Position numbers and translations under genes: made by a program. Source: Crocosphaera sp. UHCC 0190 (GTDB taxonomy: Bacteria > Cyanobacteriota > Cyanobacteriia > Cyanobacteriales > Microcystaceae). From it: a DNA stretch of 64,000 bases. Below are positions 1,764 through 44,434 of the stretch, piece by piece (within the stretch, counting starts at the first letter, position 1; each line of letters begins with the position of its first letter). The DNA is taken from the NCBI RefSeq assembly GCF_034932065.1, contig NZ_JAYGHP010000001.1:496001-560000 (forward strand). Direction: 5' to 3'. The notes beneath the pieces were generated by a model. The model was not told the origin of the DNA. It ran no database searches and saw only the letters and a program-made list of their open reading frames with translations.

Positions 1764-2174
1764 TTAAACTAAACCACCAGACGCTTGAAGACGCGCTCTG
1801 GCACGTTTAAACGCGGTAGCCGCTTTAATTTGTTCCCGACGTTCTGTTCCCTTATTAGCTTCCTCTAAACGGGTCTGAGCCTCAGAAAATTCGGCTTTGG
1901 CTTCCTCTTTATCAATGGCTTCACCAACTTCAGCAGCACTAACCAACACCTTAATTTCGTCTTGTTCGACTTCAGCAAAGCCACCCATCACCACAAGACT
2001 TTTCCATTCTTTATCAGGACGAACCCGCATCACCCCAATATCCAGGGCAGTTAATAAGGGAGCATGGCCAGTTAAAATGCCCAATTGGCCAGAGGTGCTG
2101 GGTAAGATCGCTTCTTGGACATTGCCGTCCCAAACGGTCTTATCTGGGGTAATTACACGAACTGTTAATGCCAT
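1764..2174 (-). CDS. atpC: F1Fo ATP synthase epsilon subunit (AtpE in cyanobacterial naming)
   Basis: The 136-residue epsilon subunit belongs to the F1 central stalk and restrains ATP hydrolysis. The N-terminal beta sandwich begins [17 protein letters not shown] and includes the typical [17 protein letters not shown] segment. The C-terminal third, rich in Ala, Glu and Arg, forms the two-helix inhibitory domain. The gene follows the beta subunit on the same strand after 119 bp containing two palindromic repeats. Beta and epsilon forming an operon separate from the other F1Fo genes is the normal cyanobacterial arrangement. Confidence 0.97.
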
Positions 2175-2209
2175 ATTAGTTATTAATTATCAGTTATCAG
2201 TTATTCCTA

Positions 2210-2231
2210 GGGGCAAACGGCCGTTCGCCCC
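2210..2231. repeat. Palindromic repeat GGGGC-AACGG / CCGTT-GCCCC, imperfect copy
   Basis: An 11-bp arm inverted repeat with one mismatch in the atpD-atpC spacer, 16 bp from a perfect copy at 2248-2271. Both copies are preceded by TATTCCT, showing a tandem duplication of about 38 bp. Confidence 0.8.
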
Positions 2232-2247
2232 GACATCCTTTATTCCT

Positions 2248-2271
2248 AGGGGTCAACGGCCGTTGACCCCT
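2248..2271. repeat. Perfect palindrome AGGGGTCAACGG and its complement
   Basis: A 24-bp perfect palindrome in the spacer between atpD and atpC. A 28-bp extended version lies at 19244-19271 after the pseudopilin cluster. In the atp mRNA it would fold into a strong hairpin between the beta and epsilon coding regions. Confidence 0.85.
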
Positions 2272-2293
2272 ACATCAGCGATCGCTCAATCAA

Positions 2294-3766
<1,473 letters not shown>

Positions 3767-3816: not shown

Positions 3817-4011
3817 CTATACATTATCACTTCTGGGCCATTGGGGGAATATGGCCGAAGTCGGAAGTCGGAAGTGATTTTTAAAATCCCAAGGAAGCTG
3901 GAAGCCACAACTATACCTTTTATAGAACTGAACATGACTAGAATTAGGAAAAATATCGGCAAGTCGAGAGACTAATTTACGGCTCAAATTTTGGTCAAAC
4001 AGTAGTTTCAA
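3817..4011 (-). pseudogene. Truncated DUF5615 (PIN-like) toxin
   Basis: The first 28 residues or so (MKLLFDQNLSRKLVSRLADI... to SSHVQ) match the N-terminus of DUF5615 PIN-like proteins, which are usually about 110 residues. The frame then runs into unrelated low-complexity sequence containing three near-tandem GAAGTCG units and stops at 64 residues. The rest of the nuclease fold is missing. The start overlaps the stop of the upstream DUF433 gene by 4 bp, the normal layout of such pairs. I infer an inactivated toxin. Confidence 0.7.
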
Positions 4012-4238
4012 GTACCACCTACCACAGCAATTAAATAACGTTCTCGGTTAGCAGCAACTTCTAAACACGCTTTAATATCTTCCTCTGTCAACTCTGGAAA
4101 ATCATCTAAAATTTCCTCATGAGACATCCCTGCTGCTAACCACCCCAATACGTCATATACGGTTATTCGCATTCCCCTGATGCAAGGCTTACCCCCCCGC
4201 TTCCCTGGTTCAATCGTAATAATATTTTGATAGCTCAT
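4008..4238 (-). CDS. DUF433 protein, probable antitoxin
   Basis: The 76-residue protein contains the DUF433 core ITIEPGKRGGKPCIRGMRIT, followed by the helical segment YDVLGWLAAGMSHEEILDDF and ELTEEDIKACL. DUF433 proteins are commonly encoded just upstream of DUF5615 PIN-like toxins, as here. Because the partner is truncated, this gene may be an orphan antitoxin retained after toxin loss. No clear Shine-Dalgarno sequence precedes the ATG. Confidence 0.85.
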   Translation of the reverse strand: MSYQNIITIEPGKRGGKPCIRGMRITVYDVLGWLAAGMSHEEILDDFPELTEEDIKACLEVAANRERYLIAVVGGT

Positions 4239-4967: not shown

Positions 4968-5519
4968 TCACATCCAGGAAAAAAACCATTTAGCTGCTTT
5001 GCTAATTGTACGAATTGGACTAATTGGACTAGCTAGGCTATCAATTAAAATACCAGTCGTCTTTGACACAACATCAAGAGTAATTTCCCACCAAGCTTTT
5101 TTAGCTTTAGCTTTAGCACGTTTAGAAACAATTGAAGGCTCATTATTAGATTTTTTTTTATTAATAATTCTATCTACCATCACAGCTTGTTGTTCTTTAG
5201 GTAGATCATTAATCATAGCATCTACTAACTCCATCAGACCATACCGCTCGTTAGCAGACACGGGAAGAACTTTTGCCAAAGGTAGGTCAAAGAAAGCTGC
5301 AACACTTCTTCTTTTTTCTTCAATATTTTTTAGCTGATTTTCACTTGGTCTTTTATTTTGACTGTCCCATTCTCTAAATGGTTCAATTTTATCAATCTGA
5401 TTAATCACAATAAAAAATGGTTTTCCTCTTTTAACATAAGGTCTAACCATCTTCTTGTAAAATTTTTCATCTGAATAAAAAGCTCGATCATCACCTTTCA
5501 AGACCCAAAAGATTGGGTA
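4968..5519 (-). pseudogene. 5'-truncated GTPase (YfjP/dynamin-like superfamily), C-terminal part
   Basis: The frame encodes ...PIFWVLKGDDRAFYSDE, then INQIDKIEP (G4 motif, NKxD-like) and LPVSANERYGLMELVD (G5 region). These are the middle and end of a small GTPase of the 50S-binding/dynamin-like type. The P-loop, switch regions and G3 DxxG are absent. A stop codon sits a few codons upstream of PIFWVL, after which an unrelated inverted repeat begins (5543-5607). I read this as a gene cut at its 5' end, possibly by repeat insertion or deletion. A TTG at 5501 could in theory start a 177-residue product. Confidence 0.75.
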
Positions 5520-19243: not shown

Positions 19244-19271
19244 GTAGGGGTCAACGGCCGTTGACCCCTAC
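19244..19271. repeat. 28-bp perfect palindrome (GTAGGGGTCAACGG arm)
   Basis: Perfect inverted repeat with no loop bases, located 17 bp after the last pseudopilin stop. It is the same family as the atpD-atpC spacer copies. It may stabilise or end the pseudopilin transcript, though only a weak T-run follows. Confidence 0.85.
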
Positions 19272-40074: not shown

Positions 40075-40668
40075 TTAATATCTCGATGTATCAGATATTA
40101 GGTATGTGCCTTCCTTTTCTAACCATTTTGCCATTGCCCACGCTTCTTGAAATCTAATACTTGCCATAGTCATGCCATAGTCTCTACACATCTGCTCAAA
40201 TTCTTCATAGGTAGTAGGTTGATGGGTAAACAATAACCACATCAATGCTGCTTCTGCTGTTAAATCGGTTAATCCACCTTTAGTGTGAGAGGGTCGTCGT
40301 ATAACATTACAGCGTCTACAGCGCAATGTCATATTTTCTAGCCGATCAGCATCGTCTCCTAACTGTTGTCTCGGTATTATATGATCAGCTTGAAGTTCAA
40401 GCCTAGTTCCGCAATCTAGACATCTGCCACTTTGTTCAAAATGCCATTGTCTGACAGCCTGCCAACATTGTCGTTTAGGAAAATGTTTTTGAAATGTTTT
40501 TTTACTAGCAATCGACGTACCGACTTGTGATGGGTTTAAGTGACCTAGCACTAGAGATGTTACTTCTTTGTAAGTTAATAAATTATTTGTGATAAGATCA
40601 TCAAGTAAATTGTGCCAATCATCCTCAGACCATGTTTGACTATCTATGGGATATTTACCAATTTCCAT
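40075..40668 (-). CDS. HNH endonuclease, probable restriction enzyme of an R-M locus
   Basis: The 197-residue protein has an HNH core: CLDCGTRLELQADHIIPR, then NMTLRCRRCN, with two CxxC pairs binding structural zinc around the beta-beta-alpha-metal site. The N-terminal half is specific and unrecognised, which fits a target-recognition role. It overlaps the upstream regulator by 14 bp and lies opposite a DNA methyltransferase. From this context I infer the R component of a type II-like system. Confidence 0.75.
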   Translation of the reverse strand: MEIGKYPIDSQTWSEDDWHNLLDDLITNNLLTYKEVTSLVLGHLNPSQVGTSIASKKTFQKHFPKRQCWQAVRQWHFEQSGRCLDCGTRLELQADHIIPRQQLGDDADRLENMTLRCRRCNVIRRPSHTKGGLTDLTAEAALMWLLFTHQPTTYEEFEQMCRDYGMTMASIRFQEAWAMAKWLEKEGTYLISDTSRY

Positions 40669-40939
40669 TTTGTTTTTTTAGCTCTTTCAAAATCTCAAGA
40701 ATGTCAATTTCTAAGACATGACAAATATCCAGCATTTCCATAATATCAAGTCTACGAATCCCCTTTTCATACTTAGAAACAAATGTCTGATCTTGTCCGA
40801 GTAACATCCCCAACTCAGCTTGGGATAACCCTCGCTTTTCTCGTATTTGTCTAAGCAATTCGAGCAATTGTATATACTCTCTTCGGAAGATGGTTTTTCT
40901 TTTTCCAGAAGGAGGTTGACTGTTGTTCGAGTGAGTCAT
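40655..40939 (-). CDS. XRE-family regulator, probable R-M controller (C) protein
   Basis: A 94-residue protein with a helix-turn-helix: LRQIREKRGLSQAELGMLLG, then DQTFVSKYEKGIRRLDIMEM. C proteins are small XRE regulators co-transcribed with the endonuclease gene, as here. An imperfect palindrome overlaps its start codon and a perfect one lies nearer the divergent methyltransferase gene, which suggests autoregulation. Confidence 0.82.
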   Translation of the reverse strand: MTHSNNSQPPSGKRKTIFRREYIQLLELLRQIREKRGLSQAELGMLLGQDQTFVSKYEKGIRRLDIMEMLDICHVLEIDILEILKELKKQNGNW

Positions 40940-40952
40940 GCGAATTTGGCAT
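40938..40952. promoter_or_regulatory. Candidate C-box 1, overlapping the regulator start codon
   Basis: ATGCGAATTTGGCAT is a palindrome with one mismatched pair and includes the complement of the regulator's start codon. It matches the arms of the perfect site at 40993-41011. Binding here would block the regulator's translation start or promoter. Confidence 0.6.
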
Positions 40953-40992
40953 TACACTTGTGTGTTAAACAAAGATTGACATAATTCAGAAA

Positions 40993-41011
40993 ATATGCGA
41001 AATTCGCATAT
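40993..41011. promoter_or_regulatory. Candidate C-box 2, perfect 19-bp palindrome
   Basis: ATATGCGAAATTCGCATAT is perfectly palindromic around a central A, 18 bp before the methyltransferase ATG at 41030. Together with the related site 41 bp away it fits a paired operator for the divergent R-M genes. Confidence 0.7.
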
Positions 41012-41029
41012 AAAGGATTTAAAGTTGAT

Positions 41030-43270
41030 ATGCAAATAGAACAAAGAGCGAATCAATTAATCGATAATTTTAGTAAAATGACTCTGACGGAGTGGCGACC
41101 TTCTGATGAGCTAGTAAAAAAATTGCATGAATATCTCAGTCTATTTTCTGATGAGAGAATTCAGCCAATAACCACGATCAATAATTCTCTATTATTTGTT
41201 ATCAATGAGAGACTTAATTTGAATAAAAAAATTTATCGTTTTTTGATAGATCGAGCCGCAGAAAAAGAAATTATTTTTAATTATCACCAAAAAATAGCAA
41301 TTGAGGATACTCTTAATCACCCTGATCTTAACTTTCTGAATTGGTATTTATGCGAAATTGGAGAGCATCAGAATTTAATTGATGTCTTAAAAGAAGTTGA
41401 AGATCAAAGAAATACAACTTTTCTGAATTTAGATAAATATCTTCAGCAAGACCCCAAAAAATTATTAGTAATTGAATCTATATTTTCCTCATATATTTAT
41501 CATTGTATTAATGAGGAGAAAGTACATAAAGCTCTTAATCAAGATTGTAAAACTAAATATTTTAAAAATTATTGGAGTCATTTAAAATATTTTCATGATT
41601 CACAAGTTTCTAGAGAACAAGGCTTAATAATTTTAGATATTGATAGTATTATTGAAAAAACAAACGATTATGAAGAAATACTAGATAAAGTTTTTTTACT
41701 AATTGTAGAAGCCTACAAGAATTTGACAAATCATTGTTATCTTGCTGTGATTTTAGAAAATGTTCATCCTAATAAGTGGCAATTAATTTCTGATTTGACA
41801 ATTTTTAGTGAAAAATTCTTAGAACATCCAATAGATCGTACTTACTTTAAATGGCATAAAGTTGCTGATCAAACTTTTAAATATATACAAAATCTAGCCG
41901 TTGATTCTTGTGATTTTCAACTGGGAAATGAAGGTTTTGTGTATAGAGATTGCTATCTTGTCTATCAAGATGAAAGGGAAAAGTGTATCTTGCTTTTTGA
42001 GAAAAATAAAAGAGATGAAAGATCCATTCCTTGTCCAAAATGTCGAAGTTTGCAAATTCAAGGTAATTCTTATCCTATTATTGGTGTTAGAAGTTGGGAA
42101 TGCAAAAACATATTTTGTGGTCATAAAAGTAAGTATAACAGAGGAAAACGATATTCTTTATCTTCAATTATTAGGCAACAAGCAATTTTAGATAATAACA
42201 ATATTATTAATAAAAAAATATTGAAACAGTGGAGGAGAGATATCGTAAAAATTTCTTCATTTGTTGAAGTTTATGAATTTTTAATTAGCTTTTATTCTCT
42301 TCATGGTGATACCGTATCAATTTATGGAAATTCATTAAATTCATCTAAAAATATTTTGGGAAGATCTATTAACTATTCTCAATTAGATCAATCTAAACAA
42401 GACTGTTATATTTGGAATGATAAATATAAATCAATGAATTTTTTAAAACGTTTTTTAGTTGACAAATCTTTAAAAAAAATCCCGTCACTTTATAATTTAT
42501 CTGGTATATCTGAGCTTTCTTTATATCAAGGAGATGCCTTTGAAATAGTCTCGCAGCTAGAAAGTAATTCTCTAGGTGGTGTTGTAACATCTCCACCTTA
42601 CTATAATGCTAAAAATTATTCACAATGGAGCAATATATATTGTTATTTATATGATATGTACAATATTTTCAAAGAAGTTTACCGATGTTTAAAGGACGGT
42701 TCTCCGCTTTTAATTAATATTTTTGACTATTTCGATAATGAAAAAGTGATTGTTTTTTCAGATATGGGAAAAAAAAGACTGATTTTAAGTAGTTACATAA
42801 GTTTTATTTGTCGATATATTGGCTTTAAGCATCTTGGTAATATCGCTTGGGATAAAGGAGAAATAGAAGGGAACAGAAACTTTAATCAAGGCAATTATTC
42901 ACCTTATTATCAAGCTCCACACAATTGTTGGGAGCATATTTTGATTTTTTCTAAAGAAAATCCTAATTTTAATATTCAGAAATTGCCAAAAATTATTAAA
43001 GAAAAACCAGTAACTAAGATGATCAAAGGGAAAAATGTTTATGGACATACTGCCCCCTTTCCTGAAAAAATTCCTGCTTTGCTTTTTCCGTTAATCGCAG
43101 ACCATGAAATTATACTTGATCCATTTGCTGGAAGCATGACGACTGGTATAACGGCTCTCAAACATGGTATACAGTCAATTAATATTGAATTGCATAAAAA
43201 TTACTGCGATTTAGCATTGAAGTTATTGAAAGAACAGCTTCACAATAATTTACAAGGAAGTTTATTTTAA
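41030..43270 (+). CDS. DNA methyltransferase of a restriction-modification locus, with large N-terminal extension
   Basis: The 746-residue protein has motif IV TSPPYYNAKNY near residue 519 and motif I LDPFAGSMTTG near 696, an order seen in beta-class amino-methyltransferases. SPPY favours N4-cytosine. Residues 1-330 match nothing I recognise. A zinc ribbon of four Cys (CPKC near 335 and CKNIFC near 360) follows. Strong AT bias relative to flanking genes suggests transfer. It would protect host DNA from the HNH enzyme encoded opposite. Confidence 0.85.
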   Translation: MQIEQRANQLIDNFSKMTLTEWRPSDELVKKLHEYLSLFSDERIQPITTINNSLLFVINERLNLNKKIYRFLIDRAAEKEIIFNYHQKIAIEDTLNHPDLNFLNWYLCEIGEHQNLIDVLKEVEDQRNTTFLNLDKYLQQDPKKLLVIESIFSSYIYHCINEEKVHKALNQDCKTKYFKNYWSHLKYFHDSQVSREQGLIILDIDSIIEKTNDYEEILDKVFLLIVEAYKNLTNHCYLAVILENVHPNKWQLISDLTIFSEKFLEHPIDRTYFKWHKVADQTFKYIQNLAVDSCDFQLGNEGFVYRDCYLVYQDEREKCILLFEKNKRDERSIPCPKCRSLQIQGNSYPIIGVRSWECKNIFCGHKSKYNRGKRYSLSSIIRQQAILDNNNIINKKILKQWRRDIVKISSFVEVYEFLISFYSLHGDTVSIYGNSLNSSKNILGRSINYSQLDQSKQDCYIWNDKYKSMNFLKRFLVDKSLKKIPSLYNLSGISELSLYQGDAFEIVSQLESNSLGGVVTSPPYYNAKNYSQWSNIYCYLYDMYNIFKEVYRCLKDGSPLLINIFDYFDNEKVIVFSDMGKKRLILSSYISFICRYIGFKHLGNIAWDKGEIEGNRNFNQGNYSPYYQAPHNCWEHILIFSKENPNFNIQKLPKIIKEKPVTKMIKGKNVYGHTAPFPEKIPALLFPLIADHEIILDPFAGSMTTGITALKHGIQSINIELHKNYCDLALKLLKEQLHNNLQGSLF

Positions 43271-43444: not shown

Positions 43445-44434
43445 CTAAGTTGTTTGTGAGCGAACTTTTTCAGTATAATCTTTTGAGCGAACTTGCCGAA
43501 ATACTTTTAAAATAAACTGACGAAGATTCAAGGGTATATAGGAAATAAGTAGTCCAAAATTGGTACGTTTAGAACTTCCTAAAACCAGTTTGGAAGCTTC
43601 TAAAAGTTTTCGTCCTTCTTTACTTTCTCCTTTTTCAATTAACCTTAATCCTAAATCTTGTTGAGTTTGTGCTAATTTAATAATTCTTTGTTTTTCTAAT
43701 TCCTGATCTGTAAATTGATAGCTTTCAATACAGAACAATTTAGCCTTTAAAAAGTGGAGATTTTGCCCTAAGCTGGTTTGTCCCCCATGAAAGCGATATT
43801 CCATTAAAAACTCTGGTAAAAAATAGCCAATTTTACCGATTAAAGCTAACCTAACTAATAAATCAAAATCCTCACATCCGTCTGCTTGAGGACGCATATA
43901 ATCCACTTCTTTTAAACAATTGTGACGAAATAAAGTTGATCCAACTTGTAAACTTTGATGATAAAAAGTTTGCCAATCTAAATCTTGAATAATCCCTTGT
44001 TTTATTTTATCTTTACCCCATCTCGTAACATTTTCTTTAGTTGCTGACTCTATCCGTTGATGATTTTTATTAATAATCCAATGACTGGTACAAACAAAAT
44101 CAACCCTAGGATTTTCATCTAAAATTGTTACTGTTTTCTCTAAAAATTCAGGGGTTAAAGCATCATCATCATCAAATTTAATAAAATATTCCCCTTGAGA
44201 CGCTTCAAAACCCGATCGCATATTACGACTTCTCCCGATGTTTTTGGGATGACGAATATAGCGAATTCTATCATCGTTAAACCCCTCAACAACTTGGGAG
44301 GTATCATCAGGAGAACCGTCATCGCAGATAATTAGTTCAAAATCTTTATAGGTTTGATTAAGAACACTATTAACGGCATAAATCAGGAAATGGGAACGAT
44401 TATAAGTAGGAATACAAACAGTAACTTTAGGCAT
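43445..44434 (-). CDS. Family 2 glycosyltransferase
   Basis: The 329-residue GT-A enzyme begins PKVTVCIPTYNRSHFLIYAV and has the nucleotide-binding ICDDGSPDDT and the metal-binding acidic cluster KFDDDDALTPEF. The C-terminal part contains no membrane helix. It probably adds a sugar to a surface polysaccharide or glycan. It lies 6 bp after the Npun_R2821-type gene and is likely in the same operon. Confidence 0.92.
   Translation of the reverse strand: MPKVTVCIPTYNRSHFLIYAVNSVLNQTYKDFELIICDDGSPDDTSQVVEGFNDDRIRYIRHPKNIGRSRNMRSGFEASQGEYFIKFDDDDALTPEFLEKTVTILDENPRVDFVCTSHWIINKNHQRIESATKENVTRWGKDKIKQGIIQDLDWQTFYHQSLQVGSTLFRHNCLKEVDYMRPQADGCEDFDLLVRLALIGKIGYFLPEFLMEYRFHGGQTSLGQNLHFLKAKLFCIESYQFTDQELEKQRIIKLAQTQQDLGLRLIEKGESKEGRKLLEASKLVLGSSKRTNFGLLISYIPLNLRQFILKVFRQVRSKDYTEKVRSQTT

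What the first reader, a model, noticed from the sequence alone, without database searches (positions are those of the whole stretch)
40075..43270. C-protein-controlled restriction-modification locus with paired palindromic operators
An XRE regulator and an HNH endonuclease overlap on one strand and face a DNA methyltransferase. The 90-bp divergent spacer holds a perfect 19-bp palindrome (40993-41011) and a one-mismatch version covering the regulator start codon (40938-40952), with identical ATGCGAA arms. Regulators of this kind delay endonuclease expression after entry into a new host. One box overlapping the start codon suggests direct autorepression.
Basis: partly seen in the sequence, partly recalled or inferred. 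Interest (0 to 1): 0.72.

Follow-up and report, generated by a model that had tools for sequence, protein, structure and literature searches.

The report
Two-operator switch for cyanobacterial restriction locus
A cyanobacterium carries a small DNA-cutting defence system whose own regulator appears to sit on two matching DNA sites, one placed to block the gene that protects the cell's DNA and one placed to block the regulator itself; it is an uncommon wiring of a well-known kind of switch.

Summary
An XRE regulator gene (40655-40939, -) overlaps an HNH nuclease gene (40075-40668, -) and diverges from a 746-aa DNA methyltransferase gene (41030-43270, +). Both palindromes exist, and at up to one mismatch they are the only two such sites in the 4.43-Mb genome. 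Three further intact loci in the same phylum (MTase 59-68% identical) keep both boxes at near-fixed spacing (57, 57, 57, 56 bp), while most other spacer columns vary. The second box covers the regulator's predicted start site and part of its start codon. Best reading: a restriction-modification system whose regulator represses the methyltransferase, thereby freeing the weak overlapping regulator-nuclease promoter, then represses itself. This resembles Kpn2I, EcoRV and Esp1396I control, but with two separate single operators and no tandem C-box found. A viral-contig relative has methyltransferase and nuclease without this regulator or its operators, so those two look like the core pair. Binding, transcription, cleavage and methylation are untested; the target sequence is unknown.

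The parts
40655..40939 (-). XRE/Cro-C1 family regulator, 94 aa
   Evidence: ORF; PF01381 HTH_3 E=1.8e-12; PADLOC Control_protein E=1.9e-7, just behind RmrA E=1.4e-7; PDB C.BclI E=4e-7 and C.AhdI E=6e-6, ranked after 3f6w, 2ef8 and 3eus. Residues 48-53 and 55-58 of the HTH invariant in 4 of 4 loci
40075..40668 (-). HNH nuclease, 197 aa, presumed restriction endonuclease; its start overlaps the XRE end by 14 bp
   Evidence: PF01844 HNH E=1.3e-7; D95, H96, N112 and C83/C86/C117/C120 invariant in 5 of 5 aligned homologues, one of them from a viral contig
41030..43270 (+). beta-order amino-methyltransferase (TSPPY then DPFAGS), 746 aa, with a ~480-aa N-terminal extension
   Evidence: PF01555 residues 518-730, E=6.2e-23; PADLOC MTase_II PDLC03236 E=4.5e-92, best stretch residues 318-729
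42032..42118 (+). putative zinc ribbon in the MTase extension (CPKC...ECKNIFC, residues 335-363)
   Evidence: Cysteines 335, 338, 358 and 363 invariant in 5 of 5 MTases; zinc binding is inference
40993..41011 (.). operator box 1, perfect palindrome, over the predicted MTase -10
40938..40952 (.). operator box 2, 6 of 7 symmetric, over the predicted XRE transcription start and part of its start codon
40976..40981 (+). predicted MTase promoter -35, TTGACA
   Evidence: invariant in 4 of 4 loci, always 19 bases before the box 1 core; an exact TTGACA arises in 64 of 2000 shuffles of one spacer; no transcript data
40996..41004 (+). predicted MTase promoter extended -10, TGCGAAATT, inside box 1
   Evidence: highest-scoring + strand promoter near box 1 in 4 of 4 loci, 17-bp spacer; in L067 another candidate ties. 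The score alone is not striking: 81 of 1278 stretches of 101 bp on the + strand and 274 of 2000 spacer shuffles reach 10. The generic scan did not list it because its -10 hexamer matches 3 of 6
40951..40956 (-). candidate -10 of the XRE-HNH promoter (TGTAAT), 11 nt before the XRE start codon; no clear -35
   Evidence: sequence; TATAAT, TACAAT and CTCAAT at the corresponding place in the three other loci; inferred

Best explanation
This is a type II-like restriction-modification locus with a dedicated XRE controller. The methyltransferase is driven by the better promoter (TTGACA, 17 bp, TGnGAAAWT) and is made first in a naive host. The XRE-HNH operon has a poorer promoter whose -35 region would overlap the methyltransferase -35, and a nearly leaderless transcript. 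As XRE accumulates, its dimer fills the more symmetric box 1. This blocks the methyltransferase -10 and, by ending competition for RNA polymerase, indirectly raises XRE-HNH transcription. At higher concentration it fills the less symmetric box 2 over the operon's start site and represses itself. Shown: gene order, boxes, their conservation and near-fixed spacing, and the placement of promoter-like sequences. Inferred: binding, order of affinity, repression, promoter use and competition, timing, cleavage and methylation.
For: Genes and domains. Operators unique in the genome at up to 1 mismatch. Four loci with both boxes at 57, 57, 57, 56 bp spacing; invariant columns box 1 13 of 15, box 2 11 of 15, -35 6 of 6, other spacer 9 of 36, downstream 4 of 40. 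Distance from TTGACA to box 1 identical in 4 of 4 and the -10 inside box 1 in 4 of 4. In 4 of 4 loci box 2 lies on the XRE start codon. The HTH segment G48-F53, S55-E58 is invariant in 4 of 4 regulators, as expected if they read the same site. In the 7.5 kb held of the viral relative, which has no XRE of this kind, there is no operator (best match 3 mismatches, inside its MTase gene), and the decayed locus L034, which shows no XRE ORF, has no match at up to 3 mismatches. Precedent for each step: Kpn2I (PMC6237814), Esp1396I (passages), PvuII leaderless transcript (passages).
Against: No transcript, binding or enzyme data. The MTase -10 hexamer matches only 3-4 of 6 and relies on the TG extension; a promoter score as high as the window's is reached in 274 of 2000 shuffles of the spacer, and the generic scan finds no excess of promoters over shuffles in the region (22 against mean 19.7), so promoter placement rests on the conservation across four loci. 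In L067 a second + strand candidate starting in box 2 ties with it. The XRE promoter has no clear -35, and its -10 is poor in L067 (CTCAAT). In L067 box 1 is no more symmetric than box 2 (5 of 7 each), so the affinity order is not obvious there. The E. coli sigma-70 consensus was used for cyanobacteria. HNH and MTase target sites are unknown, so their sharing one site is assumed.
Confidence: 0.67

Rival explanations
1. Canonical C-protein action: XRE bound at box 1 directly activates the XRE-HNH promoter by touching RNA polymerase, besides repressing the methyltransferase.
For: The candidate XRE promoter has a fair -10 in three of four loci and a poor -35, as activator-dependent promoters do; box spacing is nearly fixed; C.BclI and C.AhdI are among the sequence matches.
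Against: By my own count box 1 is centred about 57-58 bp upstream of the predicted start, not at the usual -41.5 or -61.5 (rule recalled), and no second site lies adjacent to either box (no further match with up to 3 mismatches in any of the four loci).
Confidence: 0.2
2. XRE is a plain autorepressor and MTase repressor that sets enzyme levels only, with no positive step and no role in establishment timing.
For: Both boxes are at repressing positions relative to the predicted promoters.
Against: The overlapping -35 regions make some coupling likely; Kpn2I shows such coupling in experiment.
Confidence: 0.25
3. XRE and HNH are an independent toxin-antitoxin-like or mobile pair that happens to lie beside an orphan methyltransferase.
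For: The HTH also matches antitoxin models such as HipB, below their cut-offs, and HipB structures weakly.
Against: All three genes recur in 4 of 4 intact loci found, with different flanking genes; the viral contig keeps HNH and MTase without this XRE; box 1 sits on the MTase side.
Confidence: 0.06
4. The locus is inactive, a decaying remnant.
For: L034 shows the same system decaying in a Crocosphaera genome.
Against: In the window all three frames are open and the catalytic and cysteine motifs are kept.
Confidence: 0.1

Closest known systems
Kpn2I restriction-modification system (C.Kpn2I), PMC6237814
   Same: Controller represses a strong divergent methyltransferase promoter, which raises transcription from the overlapping controller promoters; the controller limits itself through a site at the start of its gene. 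The paper also reports related XRE proteins with a motif at the beginning of, or immediately upstream of, their reading frames, the placement that box 2 has here (abstract, introduction, promoter mapping and discussion read).
   Different: In Kpn2I one C-box inside the C gene does both jobs (likely blocks the -35 of M, roadblock in C), and R is a separate gene with its own C-independent promoter. Here there are two separated boxes, box 1 lies on the predicted MTase -10, box 2 at the controller start, and the nuclease gene overlaps the controller gene. The Kpn2I motif sequence is in a figure that I could not see, so a relation of the motifs is untested.
Esp1396I (C.Esp1396I)
   Same: One operator for the methyltransferase gene and others for the controller-nuclease operon (passages of PMC4041747).
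   Different: Esp1396I has OL and OR side by side at the C/R promoter and convergent genes; here one site per promoter and divergent genes; different operator sequence (Esp1396I operator sequence recalled).
EcoRV control as summarised in the introduction of PMC6237814
   Same: High-affinity site overlaps the strong met promoter, low-affinity site represses the c-res operon.
   Different: There the two sites form one C-box; here the box centres are 57 bp apart.
PADLOC MTase_II PDLC03236
   Same: Residues 318-729 of the MTase, including the cysteine-rich stretch, match (E=4.5e-92).
   Different: The best stretch starts at profile position 453 of 912, so the first ~300 residues and the first half of the profile are not matched.

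Membership tests
Type II restriction-modification system | Amino-methyltransferase catalytic motifs intact | tested here: met
   PF01555 above cut-off in the window protein; TSPPY and DPFAGS/DPFSGS/DPYAGS in 5 of 5
Type II restriction-modification system | Adjacent separate nuclease with intact active-site motif | tested here: met
   HNH D95, H96, N112 invariant in 5 of 5; activity not tested
Type II restriction-modification system | Nuclease and methyltransferase travel together | tested here: met
   4 of 4 intact cyanobacterial loci and 1 viral contig; both decayed in L034
Type II restriction-modification system | Both act on the same DNA site, modification protects | not testable with these tools
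   No methylome, no assay, no characterised close relative found; M.BstXI is of the type I-like gamma kind (passages of PMC4335341 and PMC3874165)
C-protein (controller of R-M) | Small XRE-type HTH protein encoded just before and overlapping or abutting the nuclease gene | tested here: met
   overlaps of 14, 29 and 23 bp and one gap of 1 bp in the four loci (from the coordinates)
C-protein (controller of R-M) | Best match to C-protein profiles rather than other XRE proteins | tested here: inconclusive
   Control_protein E=1.9e-7 against RmrA E=1.4e-7; in L032 RmrA is also first, in L033 Control_protein is first; C.BclI ranks fourth in PDB
C-protein (controller of R-M) | Tandem C-box: two adjacent dimer sites upstream of the C gene | tested here: not met
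   Only two sites in the genome at up to 1 mismatch, 57 bp apart; no further site with up to 3 mismatches in the four loci
C-protein (controller of R-M) | GACT..AGTC type C-box motif (recalled; one of several known motif groups) | tested here: not met
   10 matches with up to 1 mismatch in the window, none in 39-44 kb, below the shuffle mean of 14.9; the other published motif groups were not compared (paper not held)
C-protein (controller of R-M) | Activates its own promoter | not testable with these tools
   needs transcription assays
Kpn2I-like control | Controller site overlaps the divergent methyltransferase promoter | tested here: inconclusive
   box 1 lies on the predicted extended -10 in 4 of 4, but the promoter itself is unproven
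Kpn2I-like control | Single C-box inside the controller gene, separate nuclease gene with own promoter | tested here: not met
   two boxes, nuclease gene overlaps controller gene

The most novel reading that the evidence does not exclude
A controller that works by repression alone: two separated single-dimer operators on back-to-back competing promoters, in which the nuclease is switched on only indirectly by shutting off the methyltransferase. It controls an enzyme pair for which I found no characterised relative, an HNH nuclease plus a methyltransferase with a ~480-aa extension bearing a zinc-ribbon-like stretch, which is also found on a viral contig without this controller.
Probability: 0.4. 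Interest if true: 0.48.

Novelty: new variant of a known kind. Interest (0 to 1): 0.36.

Why it matters
If true, the locus shows that the timing switch of restriction-modification systems can be built from two simple repressor sites on competing promoters, without a tandem C-box and without direct activation, which isolates one half of the usual circuit for testing. It also gives a clean regulator-operator pair, unique in its genome, and points to a nuclease-methyltransferase pair with unknown target sequence.

Tried and rejected
Tandem C-box and GACT..AGTC motif: looked for, not found. Assigning BstXI specificity because a Staphylococcus plasmid carries a 40%-identical methyltransferase domain next to a 'BstXI family' nuclease: rejected, since M.BstXI itself is a gamma-type, type I-like enzyme with a specificity subunit (passages) and the two nucleases show no significant similarity (best E=12).

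Structure prediction of the methyltransferase (mean pLDDT 48.0) and nuclease (54.2) from five-row alignments was too poor; no fold search was made. tblastn with the nuclease found nothing in plasmids (the second with the viral homologue) or phages at E up to 1e-5. The methyltransferase gave 28 plasmid records and the viral homologue 19 phage records, none covering 80% of the query; in the rows listed (20 and 15) only the C-terminal half matches. A first viral-contig scan with the nuclease found no relative. Looking for an empty insertion site: the two flanking genes lie far apart in the relatives that have both on one contig in the lists (for example G012, G008), so no empty site could be defined.

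The chance argument from the window alone was weak and was replaced by whole-genome and cross-species evidence. The Fisher value printed (2e-9) treats columns as independent, with anchors and one gap chosen after seeing the data; I do not rest on it.

Paper searches listed no title that I recognise as being about this system; most listed papers were not opened, and REBASE could not be searched.
Full report
What is there. The window lies at C1:496001-560000 of a 4.43-Mb genome; the named relatives of the locus are cyanobacteria. On the minus strand an XRE-type regulator (40655-40939, 94 aa) overlaps by 14 bp an HNH nuclease gene (40075-40668, 197 aa). A 746-aa methyltransferase gene starts 90 bp away on the other strand (41030-43270). 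Pfam: HTH_3 E=1.8e-12; HNH E=1.3e-7; N6_N4_Mtase E=6.2e-23 on residues 518-730 only. The methyltransferase has the beta order (TSPPY before DPFAGS) and a ~480-aa N-terminal extension with a cysteine-rich CPKC...ECKNIFC stretch. The best stretch of PADLOC profile PDLC03236 covers residues 318-729 (E=4.5e-92) but not the first ~300 residues.

The palindromes. 40993-41011 is a perfect 19-base odd palindrome, the only one with arms of 9 or more in the window; two longer even palindromes in the window belong to a 43-copy repeat. 40938-40952 has 6 of 7 symmetric pairs and overlaps two bases of the XRE start codon. A shuffle control on the window alone is unimpressive (12 of 100 shuffles reach the count at 2 mismatches). 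In the whole genome, however, ATGCGAAWTTCGCAT with up to 1 mismatch occurs at these two places and nowhere else.

Other copies. A scan of contigs of 84,980 species with six exact peptides of the methyltransferase gave three loci: L032 Crocosphaera (68% identical), L033 Nostoc (59%) and L034 Crocosphaera. The scan is not exhaustive: it did not bring in the copy described next. Nuclease searches gave full-length matches in 2 of 386 phylum genomes (36 more had weak HNH-domain matches only) and in 3 of 388 order genomes plus one partial match, counting the window's own. Contig lengths and coordinates show that G033 and G045 are the L032 and L034 records. The additional one, G359, was fetched as L067 and carries all three genes (methyltransferase 59% identical). 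So four intact loci were found in all. Their flanking genes differ: chlH and a glycosyltransferase in the window, ndhC-K-J in L032, a AAA-type protein in L033, and rsgA plus toxin-antitoxin-like genes in L067 (names by inspection). This fits horizontal movement. L034 is decayed: no XRE ORF in the list, the nuclease match ends at position 97 just after the DH motif, and the methyltransferase is in two pieces with a large internal deletion. It lies beside an ndhC-like ORF as L032 does.

A viral contig (L066, IMG/VR; the only relative found, none) has a 777-aa methyltransferase (40% identical, with the extension) convergent with a longer HNH protein (55% identical). In the 7.5 kb held it has no XRE of this kind (another XRE-like gene lies at 3841-4218) and no operator: the best match has 3 mismatches and lies inside its methyltransferase gene. 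So nuclease and methyltransferase look like the core pair, and the controller with its operators was seen only in the cyanobacterial loci.

Footprint. Oriented the same way, all four spacers hold box 2 on the XRE start codon and box 1 near the methyltransferase, 57, 57, 57 and 56 bp apart. Invariant columns: box 1 13 of 15, box 2 11 of 15, the TTGACA 6 of 6, the rest between the boxes 9 of 36, downstream of box 1 4 of 40 (L067 needed one gap, placed for best agreement). Four loci are few. The regulators share an invariant G48-F53, S55-E58 segment of the HTH in 4 of 4, as expected of proteins reading the same site. In the other loci the boxes are less perfect: symmetric pairs are 5-6 of 7 in L032, 5 and 7 in L033, and 5 and 5 in L067 (box 2, box 1).

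Promoters. In 4 of 4 loci the best-scoring promoter toward the methyltransferase near box 1 is TTGACA-17 bp-GAAATT or GAAAAT preceded by TG, at the same place relative to box 1, with the -10 inside box 1; in L067 another candidate, starting in box 2, ties. The score by itself is not remarkable: 81 of 1278 stretches of 101 bp in the window and 274 of 2000 shuffles of the spacer reach 10, although an exact TTGACA comes up in only 64 of 2000. The generic scan did not list it, since the bare -10 matches 3 of 6, and found no excess of promoters in the region (22 against 19.7 in shuffles). The case rests on the identical placement in four diverged loci. Toward XRE the candidates are weaker and less consistent: TGTAAT, TATAAT, TACAAT and CTCAAT 11 nt before the start codon, with no clear -35. 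The -35 region would overlap that of the methyltransferase. Box 2 would then cover the start site, and the transcript would be nearly leaderless. These are sequence inferences with an E. coli-type consensus; no transcript data exist.

How it most likely works. The better methyltransferase promoter fires first. XRE builds up, closes it at box 1, thereby frees its own competing promoter, and at higher level closes that at box 2. Each step has an experimental precedent. In Kpn2I the controller represses the strong methyltransferase promoter, which raises the overlapping divergent controller promoters, while a site in the controller gene limits its own synthesis (PMC6237814: abstract, introduction, promoter mapping and discussion read). 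EcoRV and Esp1396I have a methyltransferase-side site plus a self-repressing site (passages of PMC4041747). In PvuII the controller-dependent transcript is leaderless and the genes overlap, although overlap was found not to couple translation there (passages of PMC2997769); I therefore do not invoke coupling. A review describes repression of the methyltransferase promoter with relief of a competing divergent promoter as one reported case (passages of PMC12707154).

Membership. It meets the gene-level marks of a type II restriction-modification system, but shared target and protection were not testable. For the C-protein family, gene order and HTH type are met, the tandem C-box and GACT..AGTC motif are not met, profile evidence is mixed, and activation is untestable. 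I therefore say that it works like a C-protein system of the Kpn2I/EcoRV sort and do not file the regulator as a canonical C-protein. The survey that defined ten C-box motif groups (cited in PMC6237814) was not held, and the Kpn2I-like motif is shown only in a figure, so a match to a known motif group is not excluded.

Verdict. It is a modest variant of a known kind of switch. No solved structure or annotated plasmid or phage record matched the nuclease well or the methyltransferase over its full length; REBASE could not be searched, so a named relative there is possible.

Noticed in passing
window 2247-2272 and 19244-19271: Two near-identical perfect palindromes (TAGGGGTCAACGGCCGTTGACCCCTA core); the 22-base core occurs 43 times in the genome and 0 times in the reversed control: an interspersed palindromic repeat.
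   Followed up: partly
window, centred at 90, 1589 and 53462: GGTGGGCANTGCCCACC palindromes, 90 copies in the genome, 0 in the reversed control.
   Followed up: partly
L034 4690-6115: Decayed copy of the same system in Crocosphaera MO_192.B18: no regulator ORF, nuclease truncated, methyltransferase with internal deletion; a group II intron-like reverse transcriptase lies at 1836-3569 (by inspection).
   Followed up: partly
L066 236-4937: Viral contig with methyltransferase and HNH nuclease convergent, without this controller; next to it another XRE-like gene and a metalloprotease-like gene (HExxH), as in prophage regulators (by inspection).
   Followed up: partly
L032 8738-10276: A second, different DNA methyltransferase-like gene (NPPY, by inspection) about 1.5 kb from the restriction locus in Crocosphaera MO_188.B44.
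   Followed up: no
window 43454-43494: Two 14-base repeats TTGTGAGCGAACTT / TTTTGAGCGAACTT, 27 bp start to start, at the 3' end of the glycosyltransferase ORF.
   Followed up: no
L033 4938-4983: The first ATG of the Nostoc methyltransferase ORF lies inside box 1; the GTG at 4983 aligns with the starts of the others and is the likelier start.
   Followed up: partly
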